This document shows, one piece after another, positions 2,224 through 61,921 of a DNA stretch of 64,000 nucleotides. Where the stretch lies: assembly GCF_028548475.1 (NCBI RefSeq), contig NZ_JAQQLE010000006.1:62001-126000 (forward strand), read 5' to 3'. The DNA comes from Vogesella margarita. GTDB taxonomy: Bacteria; Pseudomonadota; Gammaproteobacteria; Burkholderiales; Chromobacteriaceae. Position 1 is the stretch's first letter, and each line of letters begins with the position of its first letter. The position numbers and the translations under genes were made by a program. The notes under the pieces are model-generated. The model was not told the origin of the DNA. It made no database searches and saw only the letters and a program-made list of their open reading frames with translations.

Positions 2224-3022
2224 ACTGGGTATCCACCACCGCCATCAGCGCCGCCAGCGTGTCGGCTTCGTCCGACAGCGGCTCCACCAGCGCGGTGCGG
2301 CAGGCCAGGCGCATGGCCATGCCGCTGGCGATCAGCTTGGCGCAGTACACCAGCAGCCGGGTGCTGACCGCTTCGTCCAGATCGTAGCCGGTGAGGCGGC
2401 GGATCTGGCCGGCAAGCGTCACCAGCTGTGCGGCCAACCTTTCGTCCACCCCGCCCTCGTGCTGCACCACCGCGCGCTCCACTTCCGGCAGCGGGAAATC
2501 GAAGCTCAGCGCGACGAAGCGCTGGCGGGTGGACGGTTTCAGCGTCTTCAGCACGTGCTGGTAGCCGGGGTTGTACGACACCACCAGCATGAAGCCGGGG
2601 GGTGCCTGCAATTCTTCGCCGGTGCGTTCGATCGGCAGGATGCGGCGGTCGTCGGTGAGCGGGTGCAGCACCACGGTGGTGTCCTTGCGCGCCTCCACCA
2701 CTTCGTCCAGATAGCAGATGCCGCCCTCGCGTACCGCGCGCGTCAGCGGGCCGTCGCACCAGCGGGTGTCGCCGCCGGCGATCAGGTGGCGGCCGACCAG
2801 GTCGGCGGCGGACAGGTCGTCGTGGCAGGACACGGTGAACAGCGGCAGGCCGAGCTTGGCCGCCATGTGCGCGACGAAGCGGGTCTTGCCGCAGCCGGTC
2901 GGGCCCTTGATCAGCACCGGCAACTGCTGGCGCCAGGCGGTTTCGAACACCGTGCATTCGTCGGCAACGGGCTGGTAGAACGGAAGGTTGGCCGCAAGCG
3001 CGGCACGGACAGGAGCATTCAT
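2213..3022 (-). CDS. norQ: NorQ, MoxR-type AAA+ ATPase for NO reductase maturation
   Basis: AAA+ ATPase of the CbbQ/NirQ/NorQ family that works with NorD to activate the cNOR complex. The 269 residues match the family length. Walker A GPTGCGKT is at 40-47 and Walker B ICYLDE at 102-107. The substrate-facing segment CHDDLSAADLVGRH is at about 66-79. Starts at ATG 3022, 12 bases after the norF stop. Two exact copies of the dispersed AAGGTTGGCCGC motif sit inside the gene (2429-2442 and 2982-2998). Confidence 0.92.
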   Translation of the reverse strand: MNAPVRAALAANLPFYQPVADECTVFETAWRQQLPVLIKGPTGCGKTRFVAHMAAKLGLPLFTVSCHDDLSAADLVGRHLIAGGDTRWCDGPLTRAVREGGICYLDEVVEARKDTTVVLHPLTDDRRILPIERTGEELQAPPGFMLVVSYNPGYQHVLKTLKPSTRQRFVALSFDFPLPEVERAVVQHEGGVDERLAAQLVTLAGQIRRLTGYDLDEAVSTRLLVYCAKLIASGMAMRLACRTALVEPLSDEADTLAALMAVVDTQFGH

Positions 3023-3034
3023 GGGGGCGGGTTC

Positions 3035-3292
3035 CTAGACGAAGCTGATCAGCAGCCCCCCGCACACCAGCAGCAGCCAGCCGTGGACGATGCCGCGCAG
3101 CCACAGCGGCGCATGGCGCAGCGCCATCAGCGACTCGACGATGGCGACGCCCTTGAGCCAGGCGCCGCCCAGCGCCAGCGTCGCCAGCAGCGTGCTGCCG
3201 TGCCATTCGCTCAACAGCGCCAGCAGCAGGGTCAGCGACGACAGCCACAGCCAGACCGGCCACACCGGTGGGGAGATGCGGGAGGAGTTCAT
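3035..3292 (-). CDS. norF: NorF-like small subunit (COX4-type membrane protein)
   Basis: An 85-residue protein with about three membrane helices, of the prokaryotic cytochrome-oxidase subunit IV type, which in nor clusters is called NorF. The start is taken at ATG 3292 (MNSSRISPPVWPVW), because upstream in-frame sequence is Arg/Pro-rich and overlaps the terminator of the preceding gene. It opens the norF-norQ-membrane protein-norD block. Its separation from norE and norCB by an araC-eamA pair is unusual. The family assignment is based on size, topology and context. Confidence 0.75.
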   Translation of the reverse strand: MNSSRISPPVWPVWLWLSSLTLLLALLSEWHGSTLLATLALGGAWLKGVAIVESLMALRHAPLWLRGIVHGWLLLVCGGLLISFV

Positions 3293-3317
3293 GGCTGCAT
3301 CATGCCGCAACGCCGCC

Positions 3318-3330
3318 GCGGCCAACCTTG
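3318..3330. repeat. Copy of the CAAGGTTGGCCGCAA-type motif
   Basis: Contains the exact 12-base core in the order GCGGCCAACCTT, 26 bases upstream of norF. It is one member of the dispersed family described in the entry spanning 2429-61921. Confidence 0.7.
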
Positions 3331-3346
3331 ACGACAGATAAGGAAA

Positions 3347-3371
3347 GCCCGCCGCCGAGAGGACGGCGGGC
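3347..3371 (-). terminator. Rho-independent terminator after the EamA gene
   Basis: GCCCGCCG (3347-3354) pairs with CGGCGGGC (3364-3371). On the minus strand the stem is followed by TTTCC. It lies just after the EamA stop and separates araC-eamA from norF. Confidence 0.75.
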
Positions 3372-3377
3372 AAGGCC

Positions 3378-4409: not shown

Positions 4410-4424
4410 TTGCGGCCAACCTTG
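4410..4424. repeat. Copy of the CAAGGTTGGCCGCAA motif
   Basis: TTGCGGCCAACCTTG, a full reverse-complement match to the 15-base consensus, between the AraC gene stop and the EamA start. Confidence 0.75.
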
Positions 4425-5390: not shown

Positions 5391-5975
5391 TCAGTGCGCC
5401 ACGTACACCAGCGCGAACAGCACCACCCACACCAGGTCGACCATGTGCCAGTAGGCGGCGGCGGTTTCCACGCCGTCGTGGTTGGCCGCATCGTAGGCGC
5501 CGCGGCGCGCGTTGAGGTAAACCGCGGCCACGATCACCAGGCCGAGGATCACGTGCAGGAAGTGGAAGAAGGTCAGCGACAGGTAGAACATCCAGAAGTC
5601 GCTGCTGGACAGGGTGATGCCGGCGGCGAACTTGCCGGCGAACTCCCAGCCCTTGAGCAGCACGAAACCGCCGCCCAGCAACAGCGTGGCCAGCAGGTAG
5701 CGGCGGCCGGCGGCGACAAGGTTGGCCGCAAAGGCGCGCACCGCGGCTGCCACCGTGGCGCTGCCGGCGATCAGCAGCAGGGTGTTAATCAGCGCCGGCC
5801 ACAGCAGCAACTGCGCCTGGCCTGCGGCGAACAGCGCCGCATCGCGCTGTCGCGCCACGCCGTAGACGGCGAAGAAAATGCCAAACACCGCCAGCTCGGC
5901 GAGGATGAAGAACCACATCGCCAGGTCGCCGGGGACGCGCGGCGGGGCGACAAGGCCGGGGGCGGCTGTATTCAT
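5391..5975 (-). CDS. norE: NorE, heme-copper oxidase subunit III-like protein
   Basis: A 194-residue, five-helix membrane protein of the cytochrome c oxidase subunit III family, the usual NorE accessory of cNOR. Conserved subunit III features include LAMWFFILAELAVFG near the N terminus and SLTFFHFLHVILG and YWHMVDLVWVVLF near the C terminus. Starts at ATG 5975, 62 bases beyond norB, with a terminator hairpin in the gap. Contains one exact copy of the dispersed motif at 5717-5733. Confidence 0.88.
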   Translation of the reverse strand: MNTAAPGLVAPPRVPGDLAMWFFILAELAVFGIFFAVYGVARQRDAALFAAGQAQLLLWPALINTLLLIAGSATVAAAVRAFAANLVAAGRRYLLATLLLGGGFVLLKGWEFAGKFAAGITLSSSDFWMFYLSLTFFHFLHVILGLVIVAAVYLNARRGAYDAANHDGVETAAAYWHMVDLVWVVLFALVYVAH

Positions 5976-8121: not shown

Positions 8122-8916
8122 ATGAACGCCCCTGCCCCCTTCCCCCATCCCTACCCGCTGCGCCACGGCCAGGTCAGCCTGGTCGGCGCCGGCCCCGGCG
8201 ACCCGGACCTCTTGACGCTGAAGGCGCTGCGCCGCCTCGGCGAGGCCGACGTGGTGCTGTACGACCTATTGGTGTCCGACGCGGTGCTGGCGCTCATCAA
8301 CCGCCGCGCCGAGCTGATCTGCGTCGGCAAGCGCGCCAGCCGCCACACCCTGCCGCAGCAGGACATCAACCGGCTGATCGTGGAAAAGGCGCGGCAAGGG
8401 CTGCGCGTGGTGCGCCTGAAAGGCGGCGACCCCTTCCTGTTCGGGCGCGGCGGCGAGGAGCTGGAAACGTTGGCCGCAGCCGGCATCGCCTGCGAGGTGA
8501 TCCCCGGCATCAGCGCGGCGATGGGCGCGGCCGCCGCCGCCGGCATTCCGCTGACACACCGCGACTACGCGCAGGGCGTGAGCTTCGTCACCGGCCATCG
8601 CCGCGAAGGACAGAGCGCACTGGCGTGGACCAGCCACAGCGGCGCCGAGGAGACTCTGGTGGTGTACATGGGGCTGGGCGAGGCGGCCAACATCGCAGCC
8701 CAGCTGCAGGTCGCCGGCCGCGCCGCCGCCACACCGGTGGCCATCATCGAGAACGCCACCACCGTGCAGCAGCGGGTGCTGTGCTGCGAGCTGGCCGGCC
8801 TCGGCGCCTGTGTGCAGCAGCACGCGGTCAAGCCACCGGCCCTACTGATCATCGGTGAGGTGGTACGGCTACAGGCCAGGCTGCAGGCGACGCTGGCCCA
8901 GACGCTGGCGGGCTGA
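8122..8916 (+). CDS. cobA: Uroporphyrinogen-III C-methyltransferase (SUMT; CobA/NirE type)
   Basis: Methylates uroporphyrinogen III at C2 and C7 with SAM to give precorrin-2, the branch point to siroheme, heme d1 and cobalamin. At 264 residues it is the stand-alone form, without the CysG dehydrogenase/chelatase part. Family motifs seen: VGAGPGDPDLLTLKAL near the N terminus, VVRLKGGDPFLFGRGGEE at about 94-112, and GITSAxA-like VIPGISAAMGAAAAAGIPLTHRD. Being divergent from norC across an FNR-type box, it may act as NirE for heme d1 in denitrification; that is inference. Confidence 0.92.
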   Translation: MNAPAPFPHPYPLRHGQVSLVGAGPGDPDLLTLKALRRLGEADVVLYDLLVSDAVLALINRRAELICVGKRASRHTLPQQDINRLIVEKARQGLRVVRLKGGDPFLFGRGGEELETLAAAGIACEVIPGISAAMGAAAAAGIPLTHRDYAQGVSFVTGHRREGQSALAWTSHSGAEETLVVYMGLGEAANIAAQLQVAGRAAATPVAIIENATTVQQRVLCCELAGLGACVQQHAVKPPALLIIGEVVRLQARLQATLAQTLAG

Positions 8917-9050: not shown

Positions 9051-10293
9051 AGGTCGGCAAGGCGCGGCGGGCGGTGTGGTACTGCCGCGCCGCCGCGACG
9101 AAGTGGCGCAGCAGCAGCGCCAGCAGGCCGAGCAGCGCCAGCGCCAGCGGCCAGCCCAGCTGCGGCTGCCACACCCACAGCGCCGCCAGCGGCTGCAGCA
9201 GCAACAGCGCACGCCAGCTGTGCCGCGCGGCGGTTTCCGGCACGAAGGCGTGCAGCGCCGGCACGCGATGGCGCGGCGGCGCCGCATTCTTCAGATGCAG
9301 CCACAGCAGGAAGGGCACGATGCGGTACAGCATGCCGACCACCAGCGTCAGCGCGAAACCGCCGAGCAGGCACCACGCCAGCGCACGCGCCAGCCACGGG
9401 GCCGCCCCCTGCCACATCAGCAGCGGCAGCAGCGCCGCCAGCACGGCCAAGAGTGCAAACGCCAGCCACCAGTACGGCAGCAGCCATTCCTGCGGTCGCC
9501 GGCTGGCGCGCAGCAGGCGCAGGCTGAGCACGGCAAACAGTGCCAGCGGCAGCCACGCCAGCCACCACCACGGCCACTGCGGCTGCCACTGCAGGCCGGC
9601 CGCACCGGCCAGCAAGGCCAGCAGCCACAGCGTGGCGCCGTGGCGCTGCCACCAGGCGGGATAGGCCGGCGTCAGCAGGAACATCGGCGCGATCACCTGC
9701 GCCACCGCCATCACCAGCAGCAGCACCCAGCCCTGTGCCGCCAGCCGGTGCAGCGGCAGCAGGCTCAGCAGCGGCCACGGCCGGCCCCAGCCCAGCACCG
9801 CCAGCATCGACAGGCCCAGCAGCAGGGTCACGAGCAGGAGGCCGAGGGCCAGGCGCAGGCCGCGGCTGCTGCCGTCCGCCGCCGGGCTGCGCCACAGCCC
9901 GTACAGCAGGCCCGCCATCGCGGCGGCCAGCAGCGCAAACAGCACACTGGCCAGCTGCAGCCACGGCGGCGCCAGTCCCTGGTAAAAGCCCCAGCACAGG
10001 CTGGCGGTTGCCAGCTGCCACAAGCTCCACACGCCCAGCCGCCACCACGTTGGCCGCAGGCAGGGCACACCGGACACCACCGCCACCATCTGCAGCAGGG
10101 CGCCCAGCATGGCGTTGCCGAGCACGCCCAGCGCCAGCAGATGCAGCGGCAGCAGCAGGCTCAGCGACGGGTAGTCGCCATCGGTCCGCAGCAGGCTGGC
10201 TGCCAGCGGCAGCAGCCAGAATGCCGCCGCCAAAAAATAACGCACCGGCAGCGAAAGCGGCGGTGCGCGGTCAAAACTGGGCATGGCCTGCAT
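9049..10293 (-). CDS. Polytopic membrane protein of an NO-response operon
   Basis: A 414-residue protein with about 11-12 hydrophobic helices and very high Leu/Ala/Trp content. Scattered conserved-looking histidines (PLHLLALG, LLPLHRLAAQG, LHLKNAAPPRHRVPALHAF) hint at heme or metal binding as in NnrS and heme-copper oxidase relatives, but I cannot assign it to NnrS with confidence. The ATG at 10293 overlaps the stop of the DUF2249 gene by one base, which fixes the start and the operon. Its TAG stop is formed at the edge of the MITE-like repeat. Confidence 0.75.
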   Translation of the reverse strand: MQAMPSFDRAPPLSLPVRYFLAAAFWLLPLAASLLRTDGDYPSLSLLLPLHLLALGVLGNAMLGALLQMVAVVSGVPCLRPTWWRLGVWSLWQLATASLCWGFYQGLAPPWLQLASVLFALLAAAMAGLLYGLWRSPAADGSSRGLRLALGLLLVTLLLGLSMLAVLGWGRPWPLLSLLPLHRLAAQGWVLLLVMAVAQVIAPMFLLTPAYPAWWQRHGATLWLLALLAGAAGLQWQPQWPWWWLAWLPLALFAVLSLRLLRASRRPQEWLLPYWWLAFALLAVLAALLPLLMWQGAAPWLARALAWCLLGGFALTLVVGMLYRIVPFLLWLHLKNAAPPRHRVPALHAFVPETAARHSWRALLLLQPLAALWVWQPQLGWPLALALLGLLALLLRHFVAAARQYHTARRALPT

Positions 10294-11593: not shown

Positions 11594-11607
11594 CAAGGTT
11601 GGCCGCA
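11594..11607. repeat. Copy of the CAAGGTTGGCCGCAA motif
   Basis: CAAGGTTGGCCGCA in the gap between the MarR-type regulator and the efflux operon; single copy, not part of a hairpin. Confidence 0.75.
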
Positions 11608-13114: not shown

Positions 13115-14311
13115 ATGGACAACACCACCCCGACTACCGCCCCCGACTCCACCCGCCGCACCGCCCTCACCCGCCTGACCGTGGCACTGGCCATCGCCGG
13201 TCTTGCCGCCGGCGCTTACTGGTTCCTGGCGCTGCGCCACCACCAGAGCACCGACGACGCCTACGTCGCCGGCAACCTGGTGCCGGTGTCGTCGCAAGTG
13301 GCCGGCAGCATCGTCACCATCCACGCCGACGACACCCAGAGCGTGAAGGCCGGCGACCTGCTGCTGACGCTGGATCGCAACGACGCGCAGCTGGCCTACG
13401 CCCGCGCCGAGGCCGAACTGGCGCAGGCGGTGCGCCAGACGCGGCAACTGATCTCGGTCAGCGGCAAGTCCGACGCGCTGGTGGCGCAACGCGCGGCCGA
13501 CGTCGCCCGTGCCGAGGCCGATGTCGCCCGCGCCAATGGCGATCTGGCGCGCCGCGAGGCCGCCGCCCGCGATCAGGCCATTGCCGGCGAAGAGCTGCAG
13601 CACGCCCGCGACGCGGCCAACAGTGCCCGCCTCGCGCTGAGCGCCGCCCGCGCCGCGCTGAAGGTCGGCGAGGAAGAACAGCAGGCCAGCCGCGCGCTGG
13701 TGCTCAGCGACCGCGCCGAGCAACAGCCGGCGGTGGCGCGCGCCGCCGCCGCGCTGCGCGAGAGCTACCTCGCGCTGGCGCGCACCGAGATCCGCGCACC
13801 GGTATCCGGCCAGATCGCGCGCCGCAGCGCGCAGCCCGGCGCCCGCATCCAGCCCGGCACCCCACTGCTGGCGGTGGCGGCACTGGACAGCGCCTGGGTC
13901 GACGCCAACTTCAAGGAAGGCCAGCTGCGCGAGCTGCGCATCGGCCAGCCGGTCGAGCTGCACGCCGACCTGTACGGCGATGACGTCACCTATCACGGCA
14001 CGGTCGCCGGCCTCGCCGCCGGCACCGGCAGCGTGTTCTCGCTGCTGCCGGCGCAGAACGCCACCGGCAACTGGATCAAGGTGGTGCAGCGCGTGCCGGT
14101 GCGCATCGCGCTGCAGCCCAAAGAGCTGCAGCAGCACCCGCTGCGCCTCGGCCTGTCGATGTCGGTCAGCGTCGACACCAGCCAGCAGGACGGCCCGCTG
14201 CTGAGCGCCGCCCGCCGCAATCCGGCGCTGAGCACCAGCGTGTTCGAGCGCCAGCTGGCGCAGGCCGACCAGGCGGTGGCCAAAATCATTGCGGCCAACC
14301 TTGGCCGCTAA
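13115..14311 (+). CDS. emrA: EmrA-type membrane fusion protein (HlyD family)
   Basis: Periplasmic adaptor of 398 residues linking the MFS pump to the outer-membrane channel. One N-terminal membrane helix (about 20-40) is followed by the biotinyl-lipoyl half-motif (STDDAYVAGNLVPVSSQVAGSI), a long coiled coil (about 90-220) and the second lipoyl and beta-barrel parts (RTEIRAPVSGQIARR, AALDSAWVDANFKEGQL). Its last codons contain a copy of the dispersed motif arranged as GCGGCCAA-CC-TTGGCCGC (14291-14308). Twelve bases before emrB. Confidence 0.92.
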   Translation: MDNTTPTTAPDSTRRTALTRLTVALAIAGLAAGAYWFLALRHHQSTDDAYVAGNLVPVSSQVAGSIVTIHADDTQSVKAGDLLLTLDRNDAQLAYARAEAELAQAVRQTRQLISVSGKSDALVAQRAADVARAEADVARANGDLARREAAARDQAIAGEELQHARDAANSARLALSAARAALKVGEEEQQASRALVLSDRAEQQPAVARAAAALRESYLALARTEIRAPVSGQIARRSAQPGARIQPGTPLLAVAALDSAWVDANFKEGQLRELRIGQPVELHADLYGDDVTYHGTVAGLAAGTGSVFSLLPAQNATGNWIKVVQRVPVRIALQPKELQQHPLRLGLSMSVSVDTSQQDGPLLSAARRNPALSTSVFERQLAQADQAVAKIIAANLGR

Positions 14312-15865: not shown

Positions 15866-15909
15866 GCGGCATCAGGGTTGGCCGCAAGCACGGCCGGCAA
15901 CACCAATGA

Positions 15910-20715: not shown

Positions 20716-20735
20716 TGCGGCCAACGTTGGCCGCA
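20716..20735. repeat. Palindromic copy of the dispersed motif
   Basis: TGCGGCCAACGTTGGCCGCA, two head-to-head motif halves forming a perfect 20-base palindrome, 11 bases after the dctD terminator. Confidence 0.8.
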
Positions 20736-46523: not shown

Positions 46524-47798
<1,275 letters not shown>

Positions 47799-47801: not shown

Positions 47802-47823
47802 TTGCGGCCAACGTTGGCCGCAA
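47802..47823. repeat. Palindromic copy of the dispersed motif after tyrS
   Basis: A perfect 22-base palindrome with the TGCGGCCAACGTTGGCCGCA core, three bases after the tyrS stop; 11 bases further a true terminator begins. Confidence 0.8.
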
Positions 47824-50612: not shown

Positions 50613-50626
50613 CAAGGTTGGCCGCA
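50613..50626. repeat. Copy of the CAAGGTTGGCCGCAA motif
   Basis: CAAGGTTGGCCGCA between the converging c-di-GMP gene and the orphan gene at 50627. Confidence 0.75.
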
Positions 50627-51334: not shown

Positions 51335-51430
51335 CGGAGGGTTGCGGCCAACATTATGTGGCTTCCAATACTTGATTGTACTTGAAGGCGATTTTACCAG
51401 CCGTTTTACATCACTCATCGCGACTAGGCA

Positions 51431-52011: not shown

Positions 52012-52269
52012 GCATCAGGCTGCGGCCAACCGCCGTACCCGGACTCCGCAACCCGCACCGCATCGGTGCGGGTTTTGTTTTGCCGCCCGCCGTCAGCACG
52101 CCGGCCAAGCGGAATAAAAACGGTAAAACCGGCACCATTGCGCAATAAAAATACGTCAACTCGCGCGGGGGCCGCGACCACTCGCCACCTAATTGAAATC
52201 AATTTGTCGCGGCCAAACAGCGGCGCCCCCGGCAACCCGGGCGCGGCAGTACCTCGCGGATGCCGGCCC

Positions 52270-53136
52270 CTACTGCAGCATATGCCAGGAGAACAGCGCC
52301 TCCTGTTTCAGCGCCGGCCACCGCTGCTGCCAGCAGCAGGGGTGGTCAAATCCCGGAACCAGCACCACCGCCGGCCGTTTTGTTGCCGGGAAACGCGCGG
52401 CGTAGGACAGCACCGGCCCGCTCCCGACCTGCCGGTCGGCGACACCGACATAGTGGCGCTGCGGCACATGCTGCAGACGTTGCCAGCTGTCAGCCGGGTT
52501 GAGCGAGCCCGTCAGCGGTGAAAGATGCTTGGCCGCGGTCCACGCCTGGTGATCAAGGTTGGCCGCAAGGGTAATCAGCCCGGCCACGTCCTGGCGCCGC
52601 GCGGCCAGCAGGCTGGCCAGCGTCCCGCCACCGGAATAGCCGACCAGAACCAGCCGCTGTGCCTGAAAGCGCTGCTTGAGTTGATCAAGCGCCTGATTAC
52701 TCGCCTGCACCACTTCCGGCGCAAAGCGGTGACTGGTCCAGTATTTTTGTGCGCAAAGCTCGCTACCGACACCTTCGTACTGGCATGGCCGCGCCAGATA
52801 CGCCGCCGGCTCCGGATCCTGCAGCGCCAGCAGCAGCGAGAGAGGCGTAAGCGGCGTCGGATCCAGCGATGGCGTATCCGCCGATAGCCACGCCAGGCCG
52901 TCCCCCTCCAGATACACCGTCAGCGTACCGGTAGCGGGAACGCTGGCCGGCAGATAGGCCCGCAGGCTAAAGCTGCCGGTATGCAGGCTGAGCGGCTGCC
53001 AACCGCGTGCCGCCGCCAGTTGCAGCGCCTGGCCGTTACGCTCTGCCGCATCCGGAATATGCACGCAGCCTGCCAGCAGCCCCAGCAGCAGTCCGCCACC
53101 AGCCAGCCGGCGTGAGCTCTTTCGCCATCTATTCAT
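52270..53136 (-). CDS. Alpha/beta-hydrolase lipoprotein
   Basis: A 288-residue protein starting at ATG 53136, eight bases inside the upstream ATP-grasp gene, so translationally coupled. Lipobox LLAGC puts the lipidated Cys near residue 26. The nucleophile elbow GYSGGG (in RLVLVGYSGGGTLASLLAARR), a late PGFDHPCCW carrying a plausible catalytic His, and YLEGDGLAW resembling an oxyanion strand indicate a serine hydrolase. Last gene of the autotransporter/ATP-grasp operon. Its substrate could be the product of those enzymes; that is inference. Contains a motif copy (52554-52568). Confidence 0.8.
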   Translation of the reverse strand: MNRWRKSSRRLAGGGLLLGLLAGCVHIPDAAERNGQALQLAAARGWQPLSLHTGSFSLRAYLPASVPATGTLTVYLEGDGLAWLSADTPSLDPTPLTPLSLLLALQDPEPAAYLARPCQYEGVGSELCAQKYWTSHRFAPEVVQASNQALDQLKQRFQAQRLVLVGYSGGGTLASLLAARRQDVAGLITLAANLDHQAWTAAKHLSPLTGSLNPADSWQRLQHVPQRHYVGVADRQVGSGPVLSYAARFPATKRPAVVLVPGFDHPCCWQQRWPALKQEALFSWHMLQ

Positions 53137-54874
53137 GTTCAGCATCCCCACACTGCTGCACCCGCACCGCCCGGTCCAGCGGCAGCGCCTCCTCTCGCCA
53201 CTGCGCCGGTGTGACGGCGATCGTCAGTGCGTCAACACTGCGGTCGCTCAAGAGCGCCAGGCAGCGCTGGTACAGGCTGCTGCAGGCCAAGTGATGGCGC
53301 TGCCCGGTAGCGTCCTCGCTGTGCTGCGCAGTGGTGAAGTAGCACGCCACCCCGGCACGCTGCAGCTCGTCGCGGCGCTGCCGTGCCGCCACCTCGGCCA
53401 TGGCGCCGCCGACGAACAGCTCAACCGGAATACGCCCCCCCGTCGGGAACAGCTGCTGCATCAGCAGCGGCATCGCGTCGTGCGAACTCTGGCTGGCGCC
53501 CAGCGCCGGCGCGGCATTGACCTCGTTGATGATGGCACCGTTGGCATGCCAAGGCTGGCCGATATCAGGTGTGATCATGTCGATGCCGGCCACCTCCAGG
53601 CCGAACAGCGCCGCCGCACGCAGTGCCAGCGCCAGATTGTCCGGATGGGCGGCGGCCAGCATGTCTTCATCGCGGCCGCCATCGGCCGACGATTCGATCG
53701 CGCGCAACGCTATCCACGCCCCCGCCGCCGGCACCGACGCCAGCTGCAGACCCGCCGCGCGCAGGCAGGTGTGGGTGTCGTCGTCGGCCCGCAACGGCGG
53801 CGTGCGCCGCCACGGCGGCAGGGCCAGCTGCTGCAAGTTGGCCGCATCGATCAGCGCCTGGATGCTGCGCACGCCATCGCCTTGCACCGACACCGGCAGG
53901 CGCTTGACCACATACATCACCCGCCCTCCGACCACCAGAATGCGATGACAGACGCCGGGAGCCTGCTGCTCAAGCAACAGCGGCCAGCCATAATGCGCAG
54001 CCTTGTCCAGCGCCAGTTGCAGCTGCGAGTGGTTGCCGATCCCGGTGCTGACGCCTTCGCCACGATCACGCGCCAGCGGTTTCACCACCAGCGGCCAGCC
54101 CAGCTCCTGCGCCGCGGCGCTGGCCTGTTCGCCATTGCCGACCAACCGCTGCACTGCCGTGGGCAGCCCCGCCTGCCGCAACCACTGCGCGGCCAGCTGC
54201 TTGTTGCCCGCCGCGCGGATGCCGATCGAGGAGTCGCTATCCAGCCGGCTGGTGAAGGCGTGTCGCAGCTGCACGCCCCAGCCCAGCTGGAACACGCCGT
54301 TGCCCTCGTGCCACCACGGGATGCCAAGGTTGGCCGCAGCCTGCAGCAGTGCCATGCTCGACGGCGCGGCGATGGCGTGCGGCAGAAGCCGCGGCAGGAT
54401 GTCCTGCGCCAGCGACTGGAAAAACGCGGCCAGCGGATCACTGCCCGCCGCCTGCCAGGCCACCGCCTGCAGCCAGCGGACACAGTAATCACAGGCCTGC
54501 AGCAGCAGCGTGGCCGCTACGCCATCCAGTTGTGCAAAGGCGATGTCGCACTGCCATGGTGCTGCCGCATCCTGCGGCGGCACCATGGCCAGCACCTTGC
54601 CGTCGGCCAGCAGCGGTATGCCGCAGCCGCGCAACAGCGCCGGCGTGGCGACGGCAATGCGCCAGGCAAGACGCTGCAGCTGCGCCTCGACCGGGTCGTG
54701 CGGTGTGTCCGGCCGCGCGGGCTCGACCAACGGCGACTCCAGCCAGGCATGCAGCCAGGCATCGAGTAAAGGCCAACTCATGTCGGCCGGCAGCGGGCCG
54801 AGGCGGATGCTCAACACCTGTTGTGGTTGCCGGAGCGTACTGTCAGCAAGGGAAGGCAAGGTCGTAATCGTCAT
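53129..54874 (-). CDS. Cyanophycin-synthetase-like ATP-grasp protein, second of tandem pair
   Basis: 581 residues. An N-terminal CphA-like domain (about 1-205) is followed by an ATP-grasp ligase domain (about 206-475) with SIGIRAAGNKQLAAQWLRQAGLPT, LVVKPLARDRGEGVSTGI, HRILVVGGRVMYVVKRLPVSVQGDGVRSI and the Mg-binding INEVNAAPALG. In CphA the sequence GRIP leads into a Mur-ligase P-loop. Here GRIPVELFVGG (from residue 480) has no P-loop, and only about 100 residues remain, ending VDALTIAVTPAQWREEALPLDRAV, which echoes the CphA segment before its final domain. Overlaps the first paralogue by four bases. Likely joins an amino acid to a carboxylate; the product is unknown. Confidence 0.75.
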   Translation of the reverse strand: MTITTLPSLADSTLRQPQQVLSIRLGPLPADMSWPLLDAWLHAWLESPLVEPARPDTPHDPVEAQLQRLAWRIAVATPALLRGCGIPLLADGKVLAMVPPQDAAAPWQCDIAFAQLDGVAATLLLQACDYCVRWLQAVAWQAAGSDPLAAFFQSLAQDILPRLLPHAIAAPSSMALLQAAANLGIPWWHEGNGVFQLGWGVQLRHAFTSRLDSDSSIGIRAAGNKQLAAQWLRQAGLPTAVQRLVGNGEQASAAAQELGWPLVVKPLARDRGEGVSTGIGNHSQLQLALDKAAHYGWPLLLEQQAPGVCHRILVVGGRVMYVVKRLPVSVQGDGVRSIQALIDAANLQQLALPPWRRTPPLRADDDTHTCLRAAGLQLASVPAAGAWIALRAIESSADGGRDEDMLAAAHPDNLALALRAAALFGLEVAGIDMITPDIGQPWHANGAIINEVNAAPALGASQSSHDAMPLLMQQLFPTGGRIPVELFVGGAMAEVAARQRRDELQRAGVACYFTTAQHSEDATGQRHHLACSSLYQRCLALLSDRSVDALTIAVTPAQWREEALPLDRAVRVQQCGDAEHE

Positions 54875-56688
54875 TGCAGTTCGTCAGCAGAAGGTTGCAG
54901 GTATGGTTGCAGCAGTGCCAGCCATTGCCCGGCATCCGGCGGCGCTTGGCCGCACGGGGTCTCGGCCACCACCTCCAGCCGAGAAATGCGGTCGAGCGGC
55001 AGCCCAGCCGCCAGCCAGTGACCATTGCTCACCAGCAGCACGCCCTGCACCCGCTGCTCCAGCAACAGCGCCTGCAGCCGGTGAGCCGCGTCTCCCGTCA
55101 TCGCCAGCGGCTGGCCGTGCACGTCAAGACAGAACTCGTCCGTGCAGATAAAGCAGCTGACGCCCTGCGCCGCCCACGCCGCCTGCCGCTGGCGTGCCGT
55201 TGCCAGTGCGGCCGCGCCGCCGACGTAGACCTCGACCGGGATGCGGCCACCAGCAGGCCACAGCTGCCGCAGCATGGCGGGCAGATAGCACCGGTAGCGC
55301 GTGCCAGCGCCCAGCTGCGGCGCATGATTGACCTCGTTGATTACCGCGCCGTTTTCATGCCACGGACGCCGGATATCCGGCGAAATGATATCCACCCCGG
55401 CCATCGCCAGCCCCAGCCGGCGGGCGGCACGGCAGGCCAGCGCGATGTTGTCCGGATGCACCAGCCCGGTCACATCCTCGTCCAGCGCACCGTCGATATT
55501 GCTGGGGATGTCGCGCAGGAAGAGCGGCGTGCCGGCGGGCGGGATGCTGTGCCAGTCATAGCCCTGCCGGGCGAGGCAAGCGGTCGCGGCCTGATCCTGC
55601 GGCAGCGGCGGCAGGCACCACCACAGCATCTCCTCCTGTCGCCGGTGATTCTCCGCAGCCAGGCAGTGCGCGAGATCATGGTGACCATCGGCAACCAGCG
55701 CCGCCGGCCGGCGGCGCATCACGAACAGCAGTTCGCCATCCACCACCTGCAGGTGATGGGTATCGCCGGCGACCTGGCGCTCGACAATCACCTCGCCGGC
55801 CACGGCTGCCGCCAGCCGGAAGGCCTGGCGTGCGTCGGCCTCGCTCGCCACGTCGACACTCACCCCCTGCCCGCCCTCGCCGCTTGCCGGCTTGAACACC
55901 AGCGGTGCCGCCATGTCGCGCCATGCCAGCACCGCATCGGCCTCCGTCGCCACCAGCCGCTGCTCCGGCACCGGCATGCCGCCGCTGGCCAGCCAGCGCC
56001 GGGTCAACACCTTGTTGCCGCTGACCTGGATGCCGAGCATCGAATCCGTCTCCAGCCCCCCCTGCTGCAGCCGTCGAGCATGACCGCCCCAGCCGATCTG
56101 GTAGCAGCCCTGCCCCAGATGCTGCCACGGCAGTTCGGCCACCGTGGCGGCAGCCAGCAGCGACAAGGTGGTGTCGTCAGTCGGATTGTGCCGGCACAAC
56201 GGCCCGATCAGGGTCGCCTCCAGTTGCCGGTACAACACTTCGCTGGCGGCAAAGTGGCCGGGGTTGGCGAGATAGCCGCTCAGCACGATGGCGGCGGCTT
56301 CGTAACAGCGTGAGACATCCGCCGCCGGGAAATACGCCACTTGCGCAATCGCCGCCTCAACCTGCCAGCCATCCGCCGCCGCCGGCAGCCGCGTGATCAC
56401 CCCCGGCGTGAATACCGGGATGCGCGCCAGCCGCTGCAGCTGTGCGGCCAACTGCAGCACACGCCAGGCCCACTGTGCCACGCGCTGTTCGGCTTCAGAC
56501 CACAGGGGGTCCATGGCTGCGGGCGTAACCACCAGCCGGAATGTCGCCGCCAGCCAGCGGTCGGCCGCCTGCCAGTCGGAGTCTGGTACTAGCACCACAG
56601 AGCGGAAGCGGAGGGTCTGTACCGGCTGGGACAGCCCGTAGCGGTAGACCGGCGAACGGGCAGGCTGCAACTCAAGTATGTAGGTCAT
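54871..56688 (-). CDS. Cyanophycin-synthetase-like ATP-grasp protein, first of tandem pair
   Basis: 605 residues from ATG 56688 (MTYILELQPARSPVYRYGL). Same architecture as the next gene: N domain, ATP-grasp domain (MLGIQVSGNKVLTRRWLASGGMPVPEQRL, LVFKPASGEGGQGVSVDV, AGDTHHLQVVDGELLFVMRRRPAALVADG, INEVNHAPQLG), then GRIPVEVYVGG at 481 without a Mur P-loop and a 125-residue remnant. The two paralogues are well diverged, so they may make different bonds in one product. No Shine-Dalgarno precedes ATG 56688. An in-frame ATG at 56730 lies inside the upstream hairpin. Confidence 0.75.
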   Translation of the reverse strand: MTYILELQPARSPVYRYGLSQPVQTLRFRSVVLVPDSDWQAADRWLAATFRLVVTPAAMDPLWSEAEQRVAQWAWRVLQLAAQLQRLARIPVFTPGVITRLPAAADGWQVEAAIAQVAYFPAADVSRCYEAAAIVLSGYLANPGHFAASEVLYRQLEATLIGPLCRHNPTDDTTLSLLAAATVAELPWQHLGQGCYQIGWGGHARRLQQGGLETDSMLGIQVSGNKVLTRRWLASGGMPVPEQRLVATEADAVLAWRDMAAPLVFKPASGEGGQGVSVDVASEADARQAFRLAAAVAGEVIVERQVAGDTHHLQVVDGELLFVMRRRPAALVADGHHDLAHCLAAENHRRQEEMLWWCLPPLPQDQAATACLARQGYDWHSIPPAGTPLFLRDIPSNIDGALDEDVTGLVHPDNIALACRAARRLGLAMAGVDIISPDIRRPWHENGAVINEVNHAPQLGAGTRYRCYLPAMLRQLWPAGGRIPVEVYVGGAAALATARQRQAAWAAQGVSCFICTDEFCLDVHGQPLAMTGDAAHRLQALLLEQRVQGVLLVSNGHWLAAGLPLDRISRLEVVAETPCGQAPPDAGQWLALLQPYLQPSADELQ

Positions 56689-56753: not shown

Positions 56754-58715
56754 TCAGAACATCCAGCGCAGTTTGACCGACACGGTCTGGTTCAGGAAGT
56801 CGGTCTTGTACAGCGCATCGTAACGGCCGGTGATTTCCATGCCGCTGGCGGTTTTGTGGGTCAGGCCGAAGCCGCCACGCACCTGCCACGGGCTGGGTTC
56901 CGCACCGTAGGTGACAAACGCCGCATTGGGCGCGCCGGCAAAGGCCGACACGATGGACGAGCGCTCGTTGAGAGTATCGTAACCGACACCGAGGTTGGCC
57001 TGCAGCTGGGTGCCGTTGCCGAGATCCTTGTTCAGCTTGCCTTCCAGCGCCAGCACCAGTGCATCCGACGTGCGGCTTTGCACCTGCAGGTTCAGTGCGC
57101 CGGCACCGGTTTCGCTGTAGGCCTGATCCTTGATCCAGGTGTAGTCGGCACGCAGTGATGGAATGACCGTGGTACTGCTATCCAGCGCATAGCTGCGACC
57201 GATACCCAGGCCGGCATGCGCGGTGAAGCTGTCATAGTCGGAAGAGGCCGTGGACTGGGTGAATGCGATCCGGCGTTCGCCCTGCGAGTTGCCCTGGCCA
57301 ACGTCCACCTGGAAATTCAGATTGGTGCGCTCGTCCAGGCTGTAGCTGCCGTAGCCGACCAGCTGATAGACATCCACTTCGCTGCTCTGCTTCGCCACCG
57401 TGGACTTGCCGTCGATATCGATATTGGCATAGGCCAGCGCGCCACCCAGACGCAGCTGCGGCGACAAGGCACCGTCGACCCCGACCGTCAGACCACGGGT
57501 GCGCGCATCATAGCCGGCTACGCCGTCACGGTTTTCCTGCTCCGCCCAAGAGCCGAACGGTTTGACCCACACATAACGGTCGCTAAACGCCTGGTCACCG
57601 GCCGACAGACCGGTACTGCCTTCGATACGTGCCTGTACGATCTGGTTGACGCTTGCCAGTGCATCCTGCGTCGCAGTGATAGAAGCGCCGGTATGCAGCG
57701 GCAGGGTCTGCGACACCGCGTCGGACACTTCCTGCGCGGTAGCCAGCTGGCCCAGTGCATCGACCACCTCTTGCAGACCGGACGCACCGGAATCCAGCAC
57801 CTGTGCCGCACCCAGCCCCGGGGTATTGCTGTTGTCACGCGCCGCCTGCTCCACCGTCAGTGCGCGCACGGCGTCGATATACAGGGTGTTGGAAACCACT
57901 TGCTGCGTGAAGTTGAACAGTGCGCTGTTGTCGGTGATCTGCGAGAAGGTGCCGGTGAAGGTATTCGTCGCGTGGATGATGCCGAAGGAGTGGAGGCCAG
58001 AGCTCAGGCTCAGCCCGCTGTTGGCTTTCACGTCCACATCCAGTGTGCCATCCAGCTCAACGTTGGCCGCCTGCAGGTAGCTGTAGCTGCCTTCACTGCT
58101 GGTCGACACGATGCCTACCCGCAGCGTGGCACCAGACTCCTGGCTGAAGTCACCACTCAGCACCGCTGAGCCAGCGCTACCGCTGTTACGCAGGTCGTCC
58201 CTGTCGACGCCATTCTTGAGCGTCACCACGCCGCCGTTCTGGTTGAACAGGTCGGTGGCGACGATGGAGCCGGCGATCTGGCCCTGGTTATAGATACTGA
58301 TGTCCTGCGCTTCCAGGCCGCCGGCACGGTTCACGGCATAGCTCTGCCCCACAATCACGCCACTGCTACGGTTGTAAATCTGGGTGTCAAGACTGCTCGA
58401 ATCATCCTGCAAGTAGATCGCCGTGCTACCGGTAATCCGGCCACTGTTGTCAACGGAAGTCGACACTTCGTTGCCAGAATTGATGGTAACGGCAGTGTTG
58501 CCGCTCACATCGATGGCACCGGCAGAGCTAACGGACAGGTCGCTGCATACCGTCGCCGCAGTGGTTGTCTCGGTGGTGACGGAGGTGGTGCAAGGAGTCG
58601 CCTGCGCCGAACCGGCGGCCAAGGCAAAACAGGCGGCGGCGGTGGCCAGCACCAGCAGTTTTTGCTTGCTGCCAGGTTGGCCGCAGGCAGGACGGGTGGA
58701 GAATAGGGTAGGCAT
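56754..58715 (-). CDS. Autotransporter (type Va) outer-membrane protein
   Basis: 653 residues from ATG 58715 (MPTLFSTRPACGQPG). A long signal region (about 1-40, ending AAGSAQA) is followed by a Ser/Thr/Asn/Gly-rich beta-helical passenger (about 41-330) with repeats such as VDNSGRITGSTAIYLQDD and NQGQIAGSIVATDLFNQNGG. A linker leads to a C-terminal autotransporter barrel (about 385-653) ending in KLRWMF, with the terminal Phe needed for BAM insertion. The passenger is short and has no protease motif, so adhesion or surface display is more likely. First gene of the minus-strand accessory operon. Confidence 0.88.
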   Translation of the reverse strand: MPTLFSTRPACGQPGSKQKLLVLATAAACFALAAGSAQATPCTTSVTTETTTAATVCSDLSVSSAGAIDVSGNTAVTINSGNEVSTSVDNSGRITGSTAIYLQDDSSSLDTQIYNRSSGVIVGQSYAVNRAGGLEAQDISIYNQGQIAGSIVATDLFNQNGGVVTLKNGVDRDDLRNSGSAGSAVLSGDFSQESGATLRVGIVSTSSEGSYSYLQAANVELDGTLDVDVKANSGLSLSSGLHSFGIIHATNTFTGTFSQITDNSALFNFTQQVVSNTLYIDAVRALTVEQAARDNSNTPGLGAAQVLDSGASGLQEVVDALGQLATAQEVSDAVSQTLPLHTGASITATQDALASVNQIVQARIEGSTGLSAGDQAFSDRYVWVKPFGSWAEQENRDGVAGYDARTRGLTVGVDGALSPQLRLGGALAYANIDIDGKSTVAKQSSEVDVYQLVGYGSYSLDERTNLNFQVDVGQGNSQGERRIAFTQSTASSDYDSFTAHAGLGIGRSYALDSSTTVIPSLRADYTWIKDQAYSETGAGALNLQVQSRTSDALVLALEGKLNKDLGNGTQLQANLGVGYDTLNERSSIVSAFAGAPNAAFVTYGAEPSPWQVRGGFGLTHKTASGMEITGRYDALYKTDFLNQTVSVKLRWMF

Positions 58716-59552: not shown

Positions 59553-60019
59553 GCCGCAGCCGACATTATCGTTTCCGGTATCTCCAAGGCCACATGGGTT
59601 CTCACTTAAGCTGGCGACTAGCCTGTTGCGGCAGATAGCCATCTCGCTTGATGAAGCGTTATCGGATCCGCCAATGCCAAAGCCCACCGGAAATCCGCAC
59701 CAATATTTGCCCAACGTCGAAGACTGGCTTGTCCTGCTCGTCAGTACATGAGCCTGTCCGAAAATCACGCCGCGCTACCCAGCAGGATTCGTATCGACGA
59801 AAATCCGCACAAGCAGCCTTGGCGTTGCTCCACATGCGTAGCAACACTTCATGCAAACTAAAAAGCCGACCAAAAGGTCGGCTTTTTAGAAAACCTGACA
59901 GCTAGCGCCCAAAAAACACTATTAAAGATGCATTAGTGATCTGTATCGGCCAGTAGCCAGTAGCAATGTAGAGTACAAATTATCGTTGTTCAGTACACTC
60001 AAGCGTTGGAAGTGTCACC
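59553..60019. other. Intergenic region, oxygenase / lipA
   Basis: 467 bases, more AT-rich than the surroundings. A perfect terminator occurs at 59858-59889, and an inverted repeat GTTGCT/AGCAAC lies at about 59824-59845. Short open frames on both strands show no recognisable family and no ribosome binding site; decayed coding sequence is possible. Confidence 0.5.
59858..59889. terminator. Symmetrical terminator upstream of lipA
   Basis: CTAAAAAGCCGACC (59858-59871) pairs perfectly with GGTCGGCTTTTTAG (59876-59889) around AAAA; suits both strands. Confidence 0.88.
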
Positions 60020-60967
60020 TTACACGCCGGCCTCGTGCGCCTGCACGTCAGCGTGATAGCTGGAACGTACCATGGCGCCGACGGCGGCGTGCTTGAAGCC
60101 CATTTCGTAGGCACGGGTTTCGTACTGCTTGAACACGTCCGGGTGCACGTAGCGCAGCACCGGCAGGTGGCCGTCGGTCGGCTGCAGGTACTGGCCGATG
60201 GTGATCATGTCGATATCGTGGGCGCGCATGTCGGCCATCACTTCGTACACTTCTTCATCGGTTTCGCCGAGGCCGACCATGATGCCGGACTTGGTGCGCA
60301 CTTCCGGATTGCGCGCCTTGTACTCTTTCAGCAGCGTCAGCGAGTGCTGGTAGTCGGAGCCGGGACGGGCCTGCTTGTACAGGCGCGGCGCGGTTTCCAG
60401 GTTGTGGTTCATCACGTCCGGCGCGGTGGCGCTGAGGATGTCCAGCGCGATGTCGAGACGGCCGCGGAAGTCCGGCACCAGCACCTCGATCTGGGTGCCC
60501 GGCGACTGCTTGCGCACTTCGCTGATGCAATCGGCAAAGTGCTGGGCACCGCCGTCACGCAGGTCGTCGCGGTCAACCGAGGTGATCACCACGTAGCGCA
60601 GCTTGAGCGCGGCCACGGTTTCGGCGAGGTGGATCGGCTCCTGCGCGTCCAGCGGGTTCGGACGGCCGTGGCCGACGTCACAGAACGGGCAGCGGCGGGT
60701 GCAGATGTCGCCCATGATCATGAAGGTGGCGGTGCCCTTGCTGAAGCATTCGCCGATGTTCGGGCAGGTCGCCTCTTCACAGACGGTGTGCAGTTTCTGC
60801 TCGCGCAGGATCTGCTTGATCTCGTTGAAACGCTGGCCGTTCGGCAGCTTGGCGCGAATCCACTCCGGCTTTTTGAGCTTTTCGTCCAGCGGCACGATCT
60901 TGATCGGAATGCGTGCCGTCTTGTCGGCGCCCTTGTGTTTTACGCCAACCTGGTTTTCCAGTTTCAT
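60020..60967 (-). CDS. lipA: Lipoyl synthase
   Basis: Radical-SAM enzyme inserting two sulfurs into octanoyl groups. 315 residues from ATG 60967 ([23 protein letters not shown]). The auxiliary cluster cysteines are C63, C68 and C74 ([12 protein letters not shown]); the radical-SAM cluster is C89, C93 and C96 (CTRRCPFC). The C-terminal RSSYHAD carries the conserved RSSY serine ligand. Overlaps lipB by four bases. Confidence 0.97.
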
Positions 60968-61587
60968 GCTGTCTCCTTCATCACCGTCAGGTGTCGCTCC
61001 AGCTGCGGCAGCAGCCGTTCGGCGGCTTGCGCAACGGTCAGCGCAACGCCTTGGTCTTTGATTTGAGTGACCTTGAGGCCGGCATAGCCGCAAGGGTTGA
61101 TCCACAGGAAGGGCGTCAGGTCCATGTCCACGTTCAGGCTCAGCCCGTGGTAGACGGCGCCGTTCTTGATGCGCAGGCCCAGTGACGCGATCTTCTCGCC
61201 GCCTACATAAACGCCGGGGGCGTTGACATCGCCGTAGGCGGCGATACCCAGCTCGCCCAGCATGTCGATGATCGCCTGCTCGATGCGGCGCACCAACTCA
61301 CGCACGCCGATGCCCATACGCTTGAAGTCGATCAGCAGGTAGACCACCAGCTGGCCGGGGCCGTGATAGGTGACCTGGCCGCCGCGATCGCACTTCACCA
61401 CCTCGATGCTGCTGGGCATGATCAGGTGCTCCGGCTTGCCGGCCAGGCCCAGGGTGTACACCGGAGGGTGCTCGACGCACCACAGCTCGTCCGGCGTCGC
61501 CGGCGTGCGGCTGTCGGTAAAGGCCTGCATGGCCTGCCAGGTCGGCGTGTAGTCGACCAGACCCAGCTGTTTGACGAGGCGGCTCAT
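60964..61587 (-). CDS. lipB: Octanoyl-ACP:protein octanoyltransferase
   Basis: Transfers octanoate from ACP to lipoyl domains. 207 residues. Conserved [12 protein letters not shown] at 68-79, with catalytic Lys132 in [12 protein letters not shown] and catalytic Cys166 in NPCGYAG. Directly upstream of lipA; together they make the de novo lipoylation route. Three bases after the DUF493 stop. Confidence 0.96.
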
Positions 61588-61590
61588 GGC

Positions 61591-61860
61591 TTACAGTGCA
61601 AACTTGACGAGGGCATGGCTGGATAGCGCGCGATAGATGTCGTCCAGCTGCTCGCGCGACATCGCGGTCACGGTGACGGTCAGCGACACGTAACGGCCGC
61701 TGGAGCTGTCGCGCGCCACGATGTCGGTGATGTCCAGATCCGGCGCATGCACGCGCACCACTTCGAAAATGGTGGGGTGGAAGTCAGGATGTTTCTCGCC
61801 CATCACCTTGATCGGGAAGCGGCACGGAAACTCCATCAACTCTTTCTGCTCTTCACTCAT
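61591..61860 (-). CDS. DUF493/YbeD-family protein
   Basis: 89 residues, MSEEQKELMEFPCRFPIKVMGEKHPDFHPTIFEVV, ending DDIYRALSSHALVKFAL. YbeD relatives have an ACT-like regulatory fold and are regularly encoded between dacA and lipB in proteobacteria; the biochemical role is unsettled. Closely coupled to lipB. Confidence 0.9.
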   Translation of the reverse strand: MSEEQKELMEFPCRFPIKVMGEKHPDFHPTIFEVVRVHAPDLDITDIVARDSSSGRYVSLTVTVTAMSREQLDDIYRALSSHALVKFAL

Positions 61861-61888
61861 TGCTCTGTACTCGGCTATTCCTGATGGT

Positions 61889-61921
61889 CAAGGTTGGCCG
61901 CAATGGCTGCGGCCAACCTTG
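61889..61921. terminator. Inverted pair of the dispersed motif between dacA and DUF493
   Basis: CAAGGTTGGCCGCA (61889-61902) and its exact complement TGCGGCCAACCTTG (61908-61921) form a 14-base-pair stem with a 5-base loop. This is the clearest case of two motif copies building a terminator-like hairpin; no T-run follows. Confidence 0.75.

What the first reader, a model, noticed from the sequence alone, without database searches (positions are those of the whole stretch)
2429..61921. DNA-uptake-sequence-like motif CAAGGTTGGCCGCAA
By hand count about 19 exact copies of the 12-base core AAGGTTGGCCGC occur in 64 kb, where chance predicts well under one, plus palindromic GTT variants. They lie in intergenic gaps and in conserved genes (norQ twice, norE, emrA, vanZ-like, znuC, cyt b561). 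Some form inverted pairs at gene ends (61889-61921, 23704-23725, 22653-22676, 31937-31956, 47802-47823). This is the behaviour of Neisseria DUS and Pasteurellaceae USS, but the sequence is unlike either. It may be a lineage-specific uptake or recombination signal. Other options are a chromosome-organising site or a selfish palindrome.
Basis: partly seen in the sequence, partly recalled or inferred. Interest (0 to 1): 0.82.

Follow-up and report, generated by a model that had tools for sequence, protein, structure and literature searches.

The report
DNA-uptake-like signal dialects in Vogesella relatives
About two thousand copies of a short DNA word mark the chromosome of Vogesella, a relative of Neisseria, and some related genera carry their own spellings of it, which looks like a previously unrecognised 'own DNA' label for taking up DNA from kin.

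Summary
AAGGTTGGCCGC occurs 19 times in the window (0.02 expected) and 1025 times in the 3.33-Mb genome (507/518 by strand; reversed control 0). The genus is Vogesella (Chromobacteriaceae, Neisseriales). The sharp unit is the 10-mer GTTGGCCGCA: 1871-2895 copies in 13 of 13 genus genomes, 8-58 in the other 48 family genomes. Other genera carry the same 8-mer with another ending: GTTGGCCGAA in 8 genomes (183-2168), GTTGGCCGAG in 2 (1590, 1940); 38 of 61 family genomes carry none strongly. Copies show no local strand bias, are evenly spaced, 8-fold denser between genes, paired as inverted repeats mostly behind genes, and 24-fold rarer on one plasmid-like replicon with conjugation genes. A relative of ComP, the neisserial DNA-uptake-sequence receptor, is encoded; a loop signature is in 20 of 22 ComPs read from motif genomes and 0 of 16 from motif-free ones. 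Best reading: a DNA uptake sequence with three dialects, lacking the neisserial CTG core. Uptake itself is untested.

The parts
2429..2441 (-). 12-mer AAGGTTGGCCGC plus following A (10-mer GTTGGCCGCA), inside norQ-like gene 2213-3022(-)
2984..2996 (+). 12-mer/10-mer copy inside norQ-like gene
3318..3329 (-). 12-mer copy, intergenic, followed by G (not the 10-mer)
4411..4423 (-). 12-mer/10-mer copy, intergenic
5481..5490 (+). 10-mer GTTGGCCGCA in COX3-like (norE-like) gene 5391-5975(-)
5718..5730 (+). 12-mer/10-mer copy in the same COX3-like gene
8469..8478 (+). 10-mer, coding
10049..10058 (+). 10-mer, coding
11595..11607 (+). 12-mer/10-mer, intergenic
14290..14302 (-). 12-mer/10-mer near the 3' end of the HlyD/EmrA-like gene 13115-14311
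15877..15886 (+). 10-mer, intergenic, convergent gap
17451..17460 (+). 10-mer, intergenic
18762..18771 (-). 10-mer, coding
20716..20735 (.). abutting inverted pair, perfect palindrome TGCGGCCAACGTTGGCCGCA, behind gene 19316-20644(+)
22655..22674 (.). abutting inverted pair (same palindrome) in a convergent gap
23704..23725 (.). two inverted 12-mers overlapping by two bases (AAGGTTGGCCGCGGCCAACCTT) between divergent genes; both lack the final A of the 10-mer
25326..25338 (+). 12-mer/10-mer, convergent gap
27198..27210 (-). 12-mer/10-mer, intergenic
27363..27372 (+). 10-mer in DctP-like gene
29740..29749 (+). 10-mer, coding
31937..31956 (.). abutting inverted pair (same palindrome) in a convergent gap
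32109..32121 (+). 12-mer/10-mer, coding
33219..33228 (+). 10-mer, coding
38587..38596 (-). 10-mer, coding
39696..39705 (+). 10-mer, coding
39803..39812 (-). 10-mer, coding
42405..42417 (-). 12-mer/10-mer in gene 41980-42720, next to znuB (znuC-like by position, not tested)
43370..43379 (-). 10-mer in CobW-like gene
45813..45825 (-). 12-mer/10-mer in cytochrome b561 gene
47803..47822 (.). abutting inverted pair (same palindrome), 4 nt behind the tyrosyl-tRNA synthetase gene 46509-47798(+)
50614..50626 (+). 12-mer/10-mer, convergent gap
51343..51352 (-). 10-mer, intergenic
52021..52030 (-). 10-mer, convergent gap
52555..52567 (+). 12-mer/10-mer, coding
53837..53846 (+). 10-mer, coding
54326..54338 (+). 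12-mer/10-mer, coding
56443..56452 (-). 10-mer, coding
58676..58685 (+). 10-mer, coding
61890..61920 (.). inverted pair of full 12-mers with a short loop, between two tandem - strand genes, behind gene 61931-63073(-)

Best explanation
The motif is a DNA uptake sequence (DUS): a self-DNA watermark that makes competent cells take up their own kind's DNA preferentially through the type IV pilus. The proposed receptor is a ComP-type minor pilin, encoded outside the window at G000 C1:11036-11470 (L115). DNA carrying GTTGGCCGCA is bound, pulled in and recombined into the chromosome, so copies spread and are kept wherever sequence tolerates them (between genes, as hairpin stems behind genes, in permissive codons). 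Elements that arrive by conjugation lack it. Genera have diverged in the last two bases (CA, AA, AG), giving dialects. Shown here: abundance, sharpness, dialects, layout, depletion on one plasmid-like replicon, turnover, presence of comP, comEC and comEA relatives. Inferred: that ComP reads this word, that uptake is biased, and that this drives the accumulation.
For: Abundance and specificity. Three near-exclusive dialects over one 8-mer in 23 of 61 family genomes. Most single mutants of the 10-mer are rare in the ten genome samples looked at. No significant strand bias of single copies in 8 of 8 stretches. Spacing more even than 1000 of 1000 class-matched simulations (CV 0.71 against 0.97). 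Density 2.8 per kb between genes against 0.34 in genes. All 42 close pairs (starts at most 45 bases apart, 464 kb) are inverted, 41 intergenic, 23 of them in convergent gaps and 1 in a divergent gap; of 434 called genes, 53 have such a pair within 100 nt behind the stop and 13 within 100 nt before the start. The second replicon of G003 holds 3 copies in 120 kb against 60 in a 100-kb chromosomal stretch; 11.7-fold by odds ratio against same-composition words. Copies are kept better than matched 10-mers in three relatives: intergenic 40 of 50 against 0.43, coding 38 of 47 against 0.62. ComP: best solved match is a ComP, 2NBA, 4e-10; the g2 relative's top three matches are the three ComP structures. 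ComEC in 59 of 61 family genomes; ComEA in 13 of 13 Vogesella. The loop N-x-D-x-G-x-[YF] is in 20 of 22 ComPs from motif genomes and 0 of 16 from motif-free genomes.
Against: No uptake or binding data. ComP relatives also occur without the motif: read in 9 g6 and 7 g7 genomes, and profile matches in all g6, g7 and g8, so having the gene does not predict the motif. G021 has 1851 copies but neither of its two ComP copies has the loop. The loop-motif association is confounded by phylogeny; the only within-genus contrast is G017 against nine other g6 genomes. ComEC also rings in 10 of 14 and ComEA in 8 of 14 control genomes, so they say little. Prophage regions are not clearly depleted: all four portal genes found have motif copies in their own 5-kb bin. 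The plasmid result rests on one replicon. The largest motif-free stretch of the own sample is a flagellin region, not a mobile element. Only 14 of 42 pairs have a T-rich flank, so most are not obvious intrinsic terminators.
Confidence: 0.82

Rival explanations
1. Uptake signal as above, but read by another surface protein (a FimT/GspH-like or other minor pilin, or one of the other ComP_DUS paralogues), with the ComP relative playing another part.
For: Family genomes have 1 to 5 PF16732 matches each; a second ComP_DUS pilin, beside a GspH-type and other pilins, lies at G000 C10. Motif-free genera keep ComP relatives.
Against: The clade member L115 is the one that resembles solved ComP best, and its loop tracks the motif. 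The paralogue at L185 matches geopilin and major pilins; no ComP structure is among its 28 listed matches.
Confidence: 0.15
2. A highly iterated site of the HIP1 kind in cyanobacteria, kept by DNA methylation, repair or nucleoid binding and not by uptake.
For: Many copies, even spacing, in genes and between them; a GGCC core that methylases often use (recalled).
Against: The unit is not a palindrome, yet close copies are always inverted and mostly behind genes; the last two bases differ between genera; 24-fold fewer on a second replicon; copies turn over between species. None of these excludes it alone.
Confidence: 0.07
3. A chromosome-organising or strand-oriented signal (KOPS, Chi or a nucleoid protein site).
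For: High count, even spacing, chromosome preference.
Against: Both strands are mixed at every place sampled: single copies are not significantly biased in 8 of 8 stretches and neighbours share a strand about half the time. Most of the other genomes of the family do without it.
Confidence: 0.02
4. A family of small mobile palindromes or terminator hairpins that multiplied as repeats.
For: Inverted pairs behind genes.
Against: Half of the copies lie inside genes (142 of 282), and little beyond the word is shared: only weak preferences in the few bases next to it.
Confidence: 0.02

Closest known systems
DNA uptake sequence (DUS) dialects of Neisseriaceae, read by the minor pilin ComP (Frye et al. 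2013, PMC3630211, passages read)
   Same: 10-12 base word, here about 200 to 2900 copies per carrier genome, both strands, inverted pairs behind genes, head-to-head dyads (Frye describes overlapping dyads in Simonsiella), genus dialects, ComP relative encoded, scarce on one replicon with conjugation genes
   Different: No shared core: the conserved word here is GTTGGCCG, without the CTG (or CAG) that all eight neisserial dialects keep; it lies in the neighbouring family Chromobacteriaceae, which that paper (using C. violaceum) held to have split before the DUS system arose
Uptake signal sequence (USS) of Pasteurellaceae (AAGTGCGGT, ACAAGCGGT; words from PMC12616744, passages read)
   Same: Proposed function class; high copy number (recalled)
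   Different: Sequence not enriched here (1 and 2 copies in 464 kb); different bacterial lineage; receptor only predicted (PMC12616744)
HIP1 of cyanobacteria (recalled)
   Same: Highly iterated short word inside and between genes
   Different: HIP1 is itself a palindrome (recalled); this unit is not, and its close copies are inverted pairs behind genes

Membership tests
Neisserial DUS | Hundreds to thousands of copies, far above chance | tested here: met
Neisserial DUS | Both strands equally, no local polarity | tested here: met
   507/518 genome-wide; 8 stretches
Neisserial DUS | CTG core shared by all dialects | tested here: not met
   Core GTTGGCCG / CGGCCAAC holds neither CTG nor CAG; canonical GCCGTCTGAA 0 in 464 kb
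Neisserial DUS | Inverted pairs at gene ends / terminators | tested here: met
   42 of 42 close pairs inverted, 41 intergenic; 53 three-prime against 13 five-prime ends of 434 genes; but a T-rich flank in only 14 of 42
Neisserial DUS | Dialect constant within a genus, differing between genera | tested here: met
   exceptions: G017 alone among 10 g6 genomes, G023 with 579 AA and 165 AG; CA/AA/AG were the only endings counted genome-wide
Neisserial DUS | ComP receptor homologue encoded | tested here: met
   (by sequence; also met in motif-free genera)
Neisserial DUS | ComP binds the motif | not testable with these tools
   needs protein and DNA
Neisserial DUS | Motif raises uptake and transformation | not testable with these tools
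   needs an assay
Neisserial DUS | Scarce in mobile elements | tested here: inconclusive
   One replicon with conjugation genes clearly depleted; regions around four phage portal genes not clearly
Neisserial DUS | Occurs in Neisseriaceae | tested here: not met
   Genus Vogesella, family Chromobacteriaceae; strong enrichment only in family f1 among 399 genomes drawn from the order
Pasteurellaceae USS | AAGTGCGGT or ACAAGCGGT enriched | tested here: not met
   1 and 2 copies in 464 kb
HIP1-type iterated palindrome | The repeated unit is itself a palindrome | tested here: not met
   10-mer not self-complementary; 36 of 73 AACGTTGGCCGC sites lie in palindromes
KOPS / Chi-like polar motif | Local strand polarity | tested here: not met

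The most novel reading that the evidence does not exclude
Uptake sequences are not an invention of Neisseriaceae. The neighbouring family uses the same ComP-type receptor with an entirely different word, so ComP has switched its whole recognition core at least once, and within this family has switched endings (CA, AA, AG) and lost recognition in some genera while keeping the gene. The uptake-signal system, or at least the receptor, would predate the split of the two families.
Probability: 0.6. Interest if true: 0.85.

Novelty: new variant of a known kind. Interest (0 to 1): 0.77.

Why it matters
The papers whose passages I read know uptake signals in two families, Neisseriaceae and Pasteurellaceae. 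Frye et al. 2013 placed the neisserial origin after the split from C. violaceum and found no ComP there by BLAST (PMC3630211, passages). A third, unrelated word with three dialects and matching receptor relatives in a neighbouring family gives natural variants, in both signal and receptor, for working out how a pilin reads DNA, how such a code changes and how it sets barriers to gene exchange. Motif-poor stretches could also flag recently acquired DNA in these genomes.

Tried and rejected
Rejected: (1) artefact or composition effect: shuffles, reversed control, and 12,599 same-composition words in 100 kb of G003, none of which reaches the motif's count (60; next 27, a shifted form of it). (2) A 12-mer unit: the 10-mer is sharper and genus-wide. 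(3) Strand-polar motif. (4) The truncated listing seemed to show only + copies beyond 119 kb of C1; this was the listing limit, since C1 300-400 kb holds +28/-32 of the 10-mer. (5) The PF16732 paralogue at L185 as receptor: matched geopilin and major pilins, not ComP. (6) The 12.3-kb motif-free gap as a mobile island: a flagellin region. (7) Prophage depletion: not clear. (8) Known uptake words: absent or at chance level in the samples.

Not done: structure prediction of ComP. ComP was read from 21 of 23 motif-positive genomes (not G002, G006) and from 16 of 38 motif-negative ones (9 g6, 7 g7). Word discovery in motif-free genera used only 40 kb each of g6, g7, g8 and g9, so another word there is not excluded. 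Only the endings CA, AA and AG (and CG together with them) were counted genome-wide.

Literature: 'Vogesella' with 'DNA uptake sequence' gave 0 papers; the motif strings gave 124 papers, of which the 25 listed have titles that show nothing about uptake signals; ComP+DUS+Chromobacterium+natural transformation gave 2 papers, one being Frye 2013; Chromobacteriaceae with DNA uptake terms gave 226, of which 20 were listed; Vogesella+competence+transformation gave 7 listings. Frye's Table S1D (over-represented words in the five DUS-less genomes) could not be opened, so a listing of one of these words there is not excluded.


Full report
CHECK OF THE OBSERVATION. The 12-mer AAGGTTGGCCGC occurs 19 times in the window against 0.02 in shuffles. 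The whole genome (G000, 3.33 Mb, 26 contigs) holds 507 forward and 518 reverse copies; the word read backwards occurs 0 times. Contig lengths of G012 (145449, 84010) and G005 (106023, 799755) equal those of V. fluminis KCTC 23713 and V. indigofera DSM 3303, so genus g1 is taken to be Vogesella, which NCBI places in Chromobacteriaceae, Neisseriales, as it does Chromobacterium.

WHAT THE UNIT IS. In 464 kb of own sequence (window plus 400 kb) the sharpest word is GTTGGCCGCA, 282 copies. Its single mutants number 0-8 each except at the last base (G 41, C 22) and C at the first (15). In front stands a weaker preference, A at -2 (86%) and -3 (81%) in this species, weaker in G001, G003 and G010. That fits the 12-mer count of 485-635 in eight Vogesella genomes against 965-1050 in the other five, while the 10-mer count is 1871-2895 in all 13. 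In the other carriers sampled single mutants are also mostly few, with exceptions: C at the first base 13-25 in G014, G016 and G024, and one mutant at 12 beside 29 exact copies in G017.

DIALECTS. Samples of other genera of the family showed a related word, then counted in all 61 held genomes. GTTGGCCGAA: G014 2168, G021 1851, G017 1368, G016 1245, G013 1104, G022 893, G023 579, G029 183; the rest at most 78. GTTGGCCGAG: G024 1940, G015 1590; then G023 165, G027 92, G036 85, the rest at most 67. GTTGGCCGCA: 13 of 13 Vogesella, 8-58 in the other 48. So 23 of 61 genomes carry one dialect strongly (G029 least); the 38 without are 9 of 10 in g6, 19 of 19 in g7, 6 of 6 in g8 (two with a weak excess) and 4 of 4 in g9. 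Among 399 genomes drawn evenly from the order, the 386 outside this family (family labels f2-f51) have at most 223 matches to GTTGGCCGMR, which covers four endings, against 1304 or more for the eight carriers in that draw; a carrier as weak as G029 could hide there.

LAYOUT. Genes were called with my own hexamer script. The 10-mer is at 2.8 per kb between genes and 0.34 per kb in genes (142 of 282 in genes). Spacing is more even than in any of 1000 simulations that keep the coding/intergenic split (CV 0.71 against 0.97 with sd 0.06). Single copies show no significant strand bias in any of 8 stretches (lowest p 0.09). All 42 close pairs are inverted: 41 are intergenic, 23 in convergent gaps, 16 in tandem gaps, 1 divergent, 1 with an unread neighbour. 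Of 434 genes, 53 have such a pair within 100 nt behind the stop and 13 within 100 nt before the start. Fifteen pairs abut as the palindrome TGCGGCCAACGTTGGCCGCA. A T-rich flank was found for 14 of 42 pairs, against 15% of random intergenic 12-mers, so terminator use is likely for some but not shown for most.

TURNOVER AND MOBILE DNA. In three relatives about 94% identical over the 72-78% of the window that aligned (G004, G005, G011), motif copies are kept more often than matched 10-mers: intergenic 40 of 50 against 0.43, coding 38 of 47 against 0.62; the counts pool the same sites over three relatives, so they are not independent. In G001 and G010 (76-80% identical) 5 of 19 alignable sites are kept, yet 50 and 47 copies stand in the 80 kb around, so copy number is kept while places change. 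The second replicon of G003 (164.5 kb, 120 kb read) carries ParA, a type IV coupling protein, an ArdC-like protein, a topoisomerase and a secretin (a relaxase was not sought), and holds 3 copies against 60 in one 100-kb chromosomal stretch and 46 in another; same-composition words differ only 2-fold. Phage portal genes were found in 4 of 13 genomes; the 60-100 kb around them hold 2.7, 4.6, 5.2 and 4.8 copies per 10 kb, with motif copies in the portal's own 5-kb bin each time, so prophages are not clearly depleted.

RECEPTOR AND MACHINERY. PF16732 (ComP_DUS) hits all 61 family genomes (1-5 matches each) and none of 14 control genomes. A tree separated a clade with an ENAxFxE-like stretch. Its Vogesella member (L115:11036-11470, G000 C1) has ComP 2NBA as best solved match; major pilins come next, and ComP 2M3K and 5HZ7 stand ninth and tenth. 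The g2 member and the g7 member G035 have the three ComP structures as their top three. G035's contig length of 4,751,080 equals, from recall, that of C. violaceum ATCC 12472. A profile of the clade finds near-full-length matches in every genus except g9, whose four genomes show only shorter, lower-scoring ones; the g8 matches (90-123 bits, one with a stop inside) and the weaker g7 ones overlap the score of a paralogue (100 bits) and were not read. Between the strands that align with solved ComP, motif genomes show N-x-D-x-G-x-[YF]: 20 of 22 distinct ComPs from 21 of the 23 motif genomes (the two exceptions are both copies of G021), and 0 of 16 from motif-free g6 and g7 (that script's total of 24 lists the G021 copies twice). 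Within g6 only G017 has the motif and only G017 has the loop. A 2025 paper reports the highest signals on DUS binding in the first strand-strand loop of neisserial ComP (PMC12616744, passage); that this is the same loop is my inference from the alignment. ComEC was found in 59 of 61 family genomes (missing in G002 and G008, partial in G004) and in 10 of 14 controls; ComEA in 13 of 13 Vogesella and 8 of 14 controls.

COMPARISON. Frye et al. 2013 (PMC3630211, passages) describe eight neisserial dialects that all keep CTG, inverted pairs tied to terminators, and overlapping dyads in Simonsiella. They report no obvious DUS in Laribacter, Lutiella, Pseudogulbenkiania and two Chromobacterium genomes, no ComP by BLAST in C. 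violaceum, and an origin after that split. Here g7, which includes G035, also lacks the motif, in agreement, but ComP relatives are present through most of the family, and six genera plus G017 carry a non-CTG word. It works like a DUS; it is not a member of the neisserial DUS set, because the CTG core was tested and not met.

WEIGHT. Shown: count, sharpness, dialects, layout, depletion on one replicon, genes. Inferred: that the word is read by ComP and biases uptake. The main doubts are the retained ComP in motif-free genera, the G021 exception, the unclear prophage result and the lack of any assay.

Noticed in passing
L115:11036-11470: The comP of the window's own genome has a two-residue insertion in its N-terminal helix compared with G004, G005, G011 and G012, which might affect pilus assembly.
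   Followed up: no
G023 and G014 (genus g3): Two genomes of one genus differ nearly four-fold in GTTGGCCGAA (579 against 2168), and the poorer one also has 165 GTTGGCCGAG: possible decay or dialect change.
   Followed up: no
G027 and G036 (genus g8): Weak excess of GTTGGCCGAG (92 and 85, controls 21 and 17) and GTTGGCCGAA (62 and 45, controls 13 and 11): perhaps a relic or start of a dialect.
   Followed up: no
Family f49 (for example G288): GTTGGCCGMR modestly above its reversed control (139 against 31 in G288; 91 against 28 in G151), far below most motif carriers; meaning unclear.
   Followed up: no
G000 C1:88937-101217 (L119-L120): Longest motif-free stretch of the own sample, 57% G+C, holding flagellin, fliD and fliS genes.
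   Followed up: partly
G003 C2, 164.5 kb (L315-L320): Low-G+C second replicon with ParA, type IV coupling protein, ArdC-like protein, topoisomerase and a secretin; 4 of 10 long proteins scanned had no Pfam match.
   Followed up: partly
window, whole: CAGCAGCA/TGCTGCTG is also over-represented (76 against 8.7), probably codon repeats; not studied.
   Followed up: no
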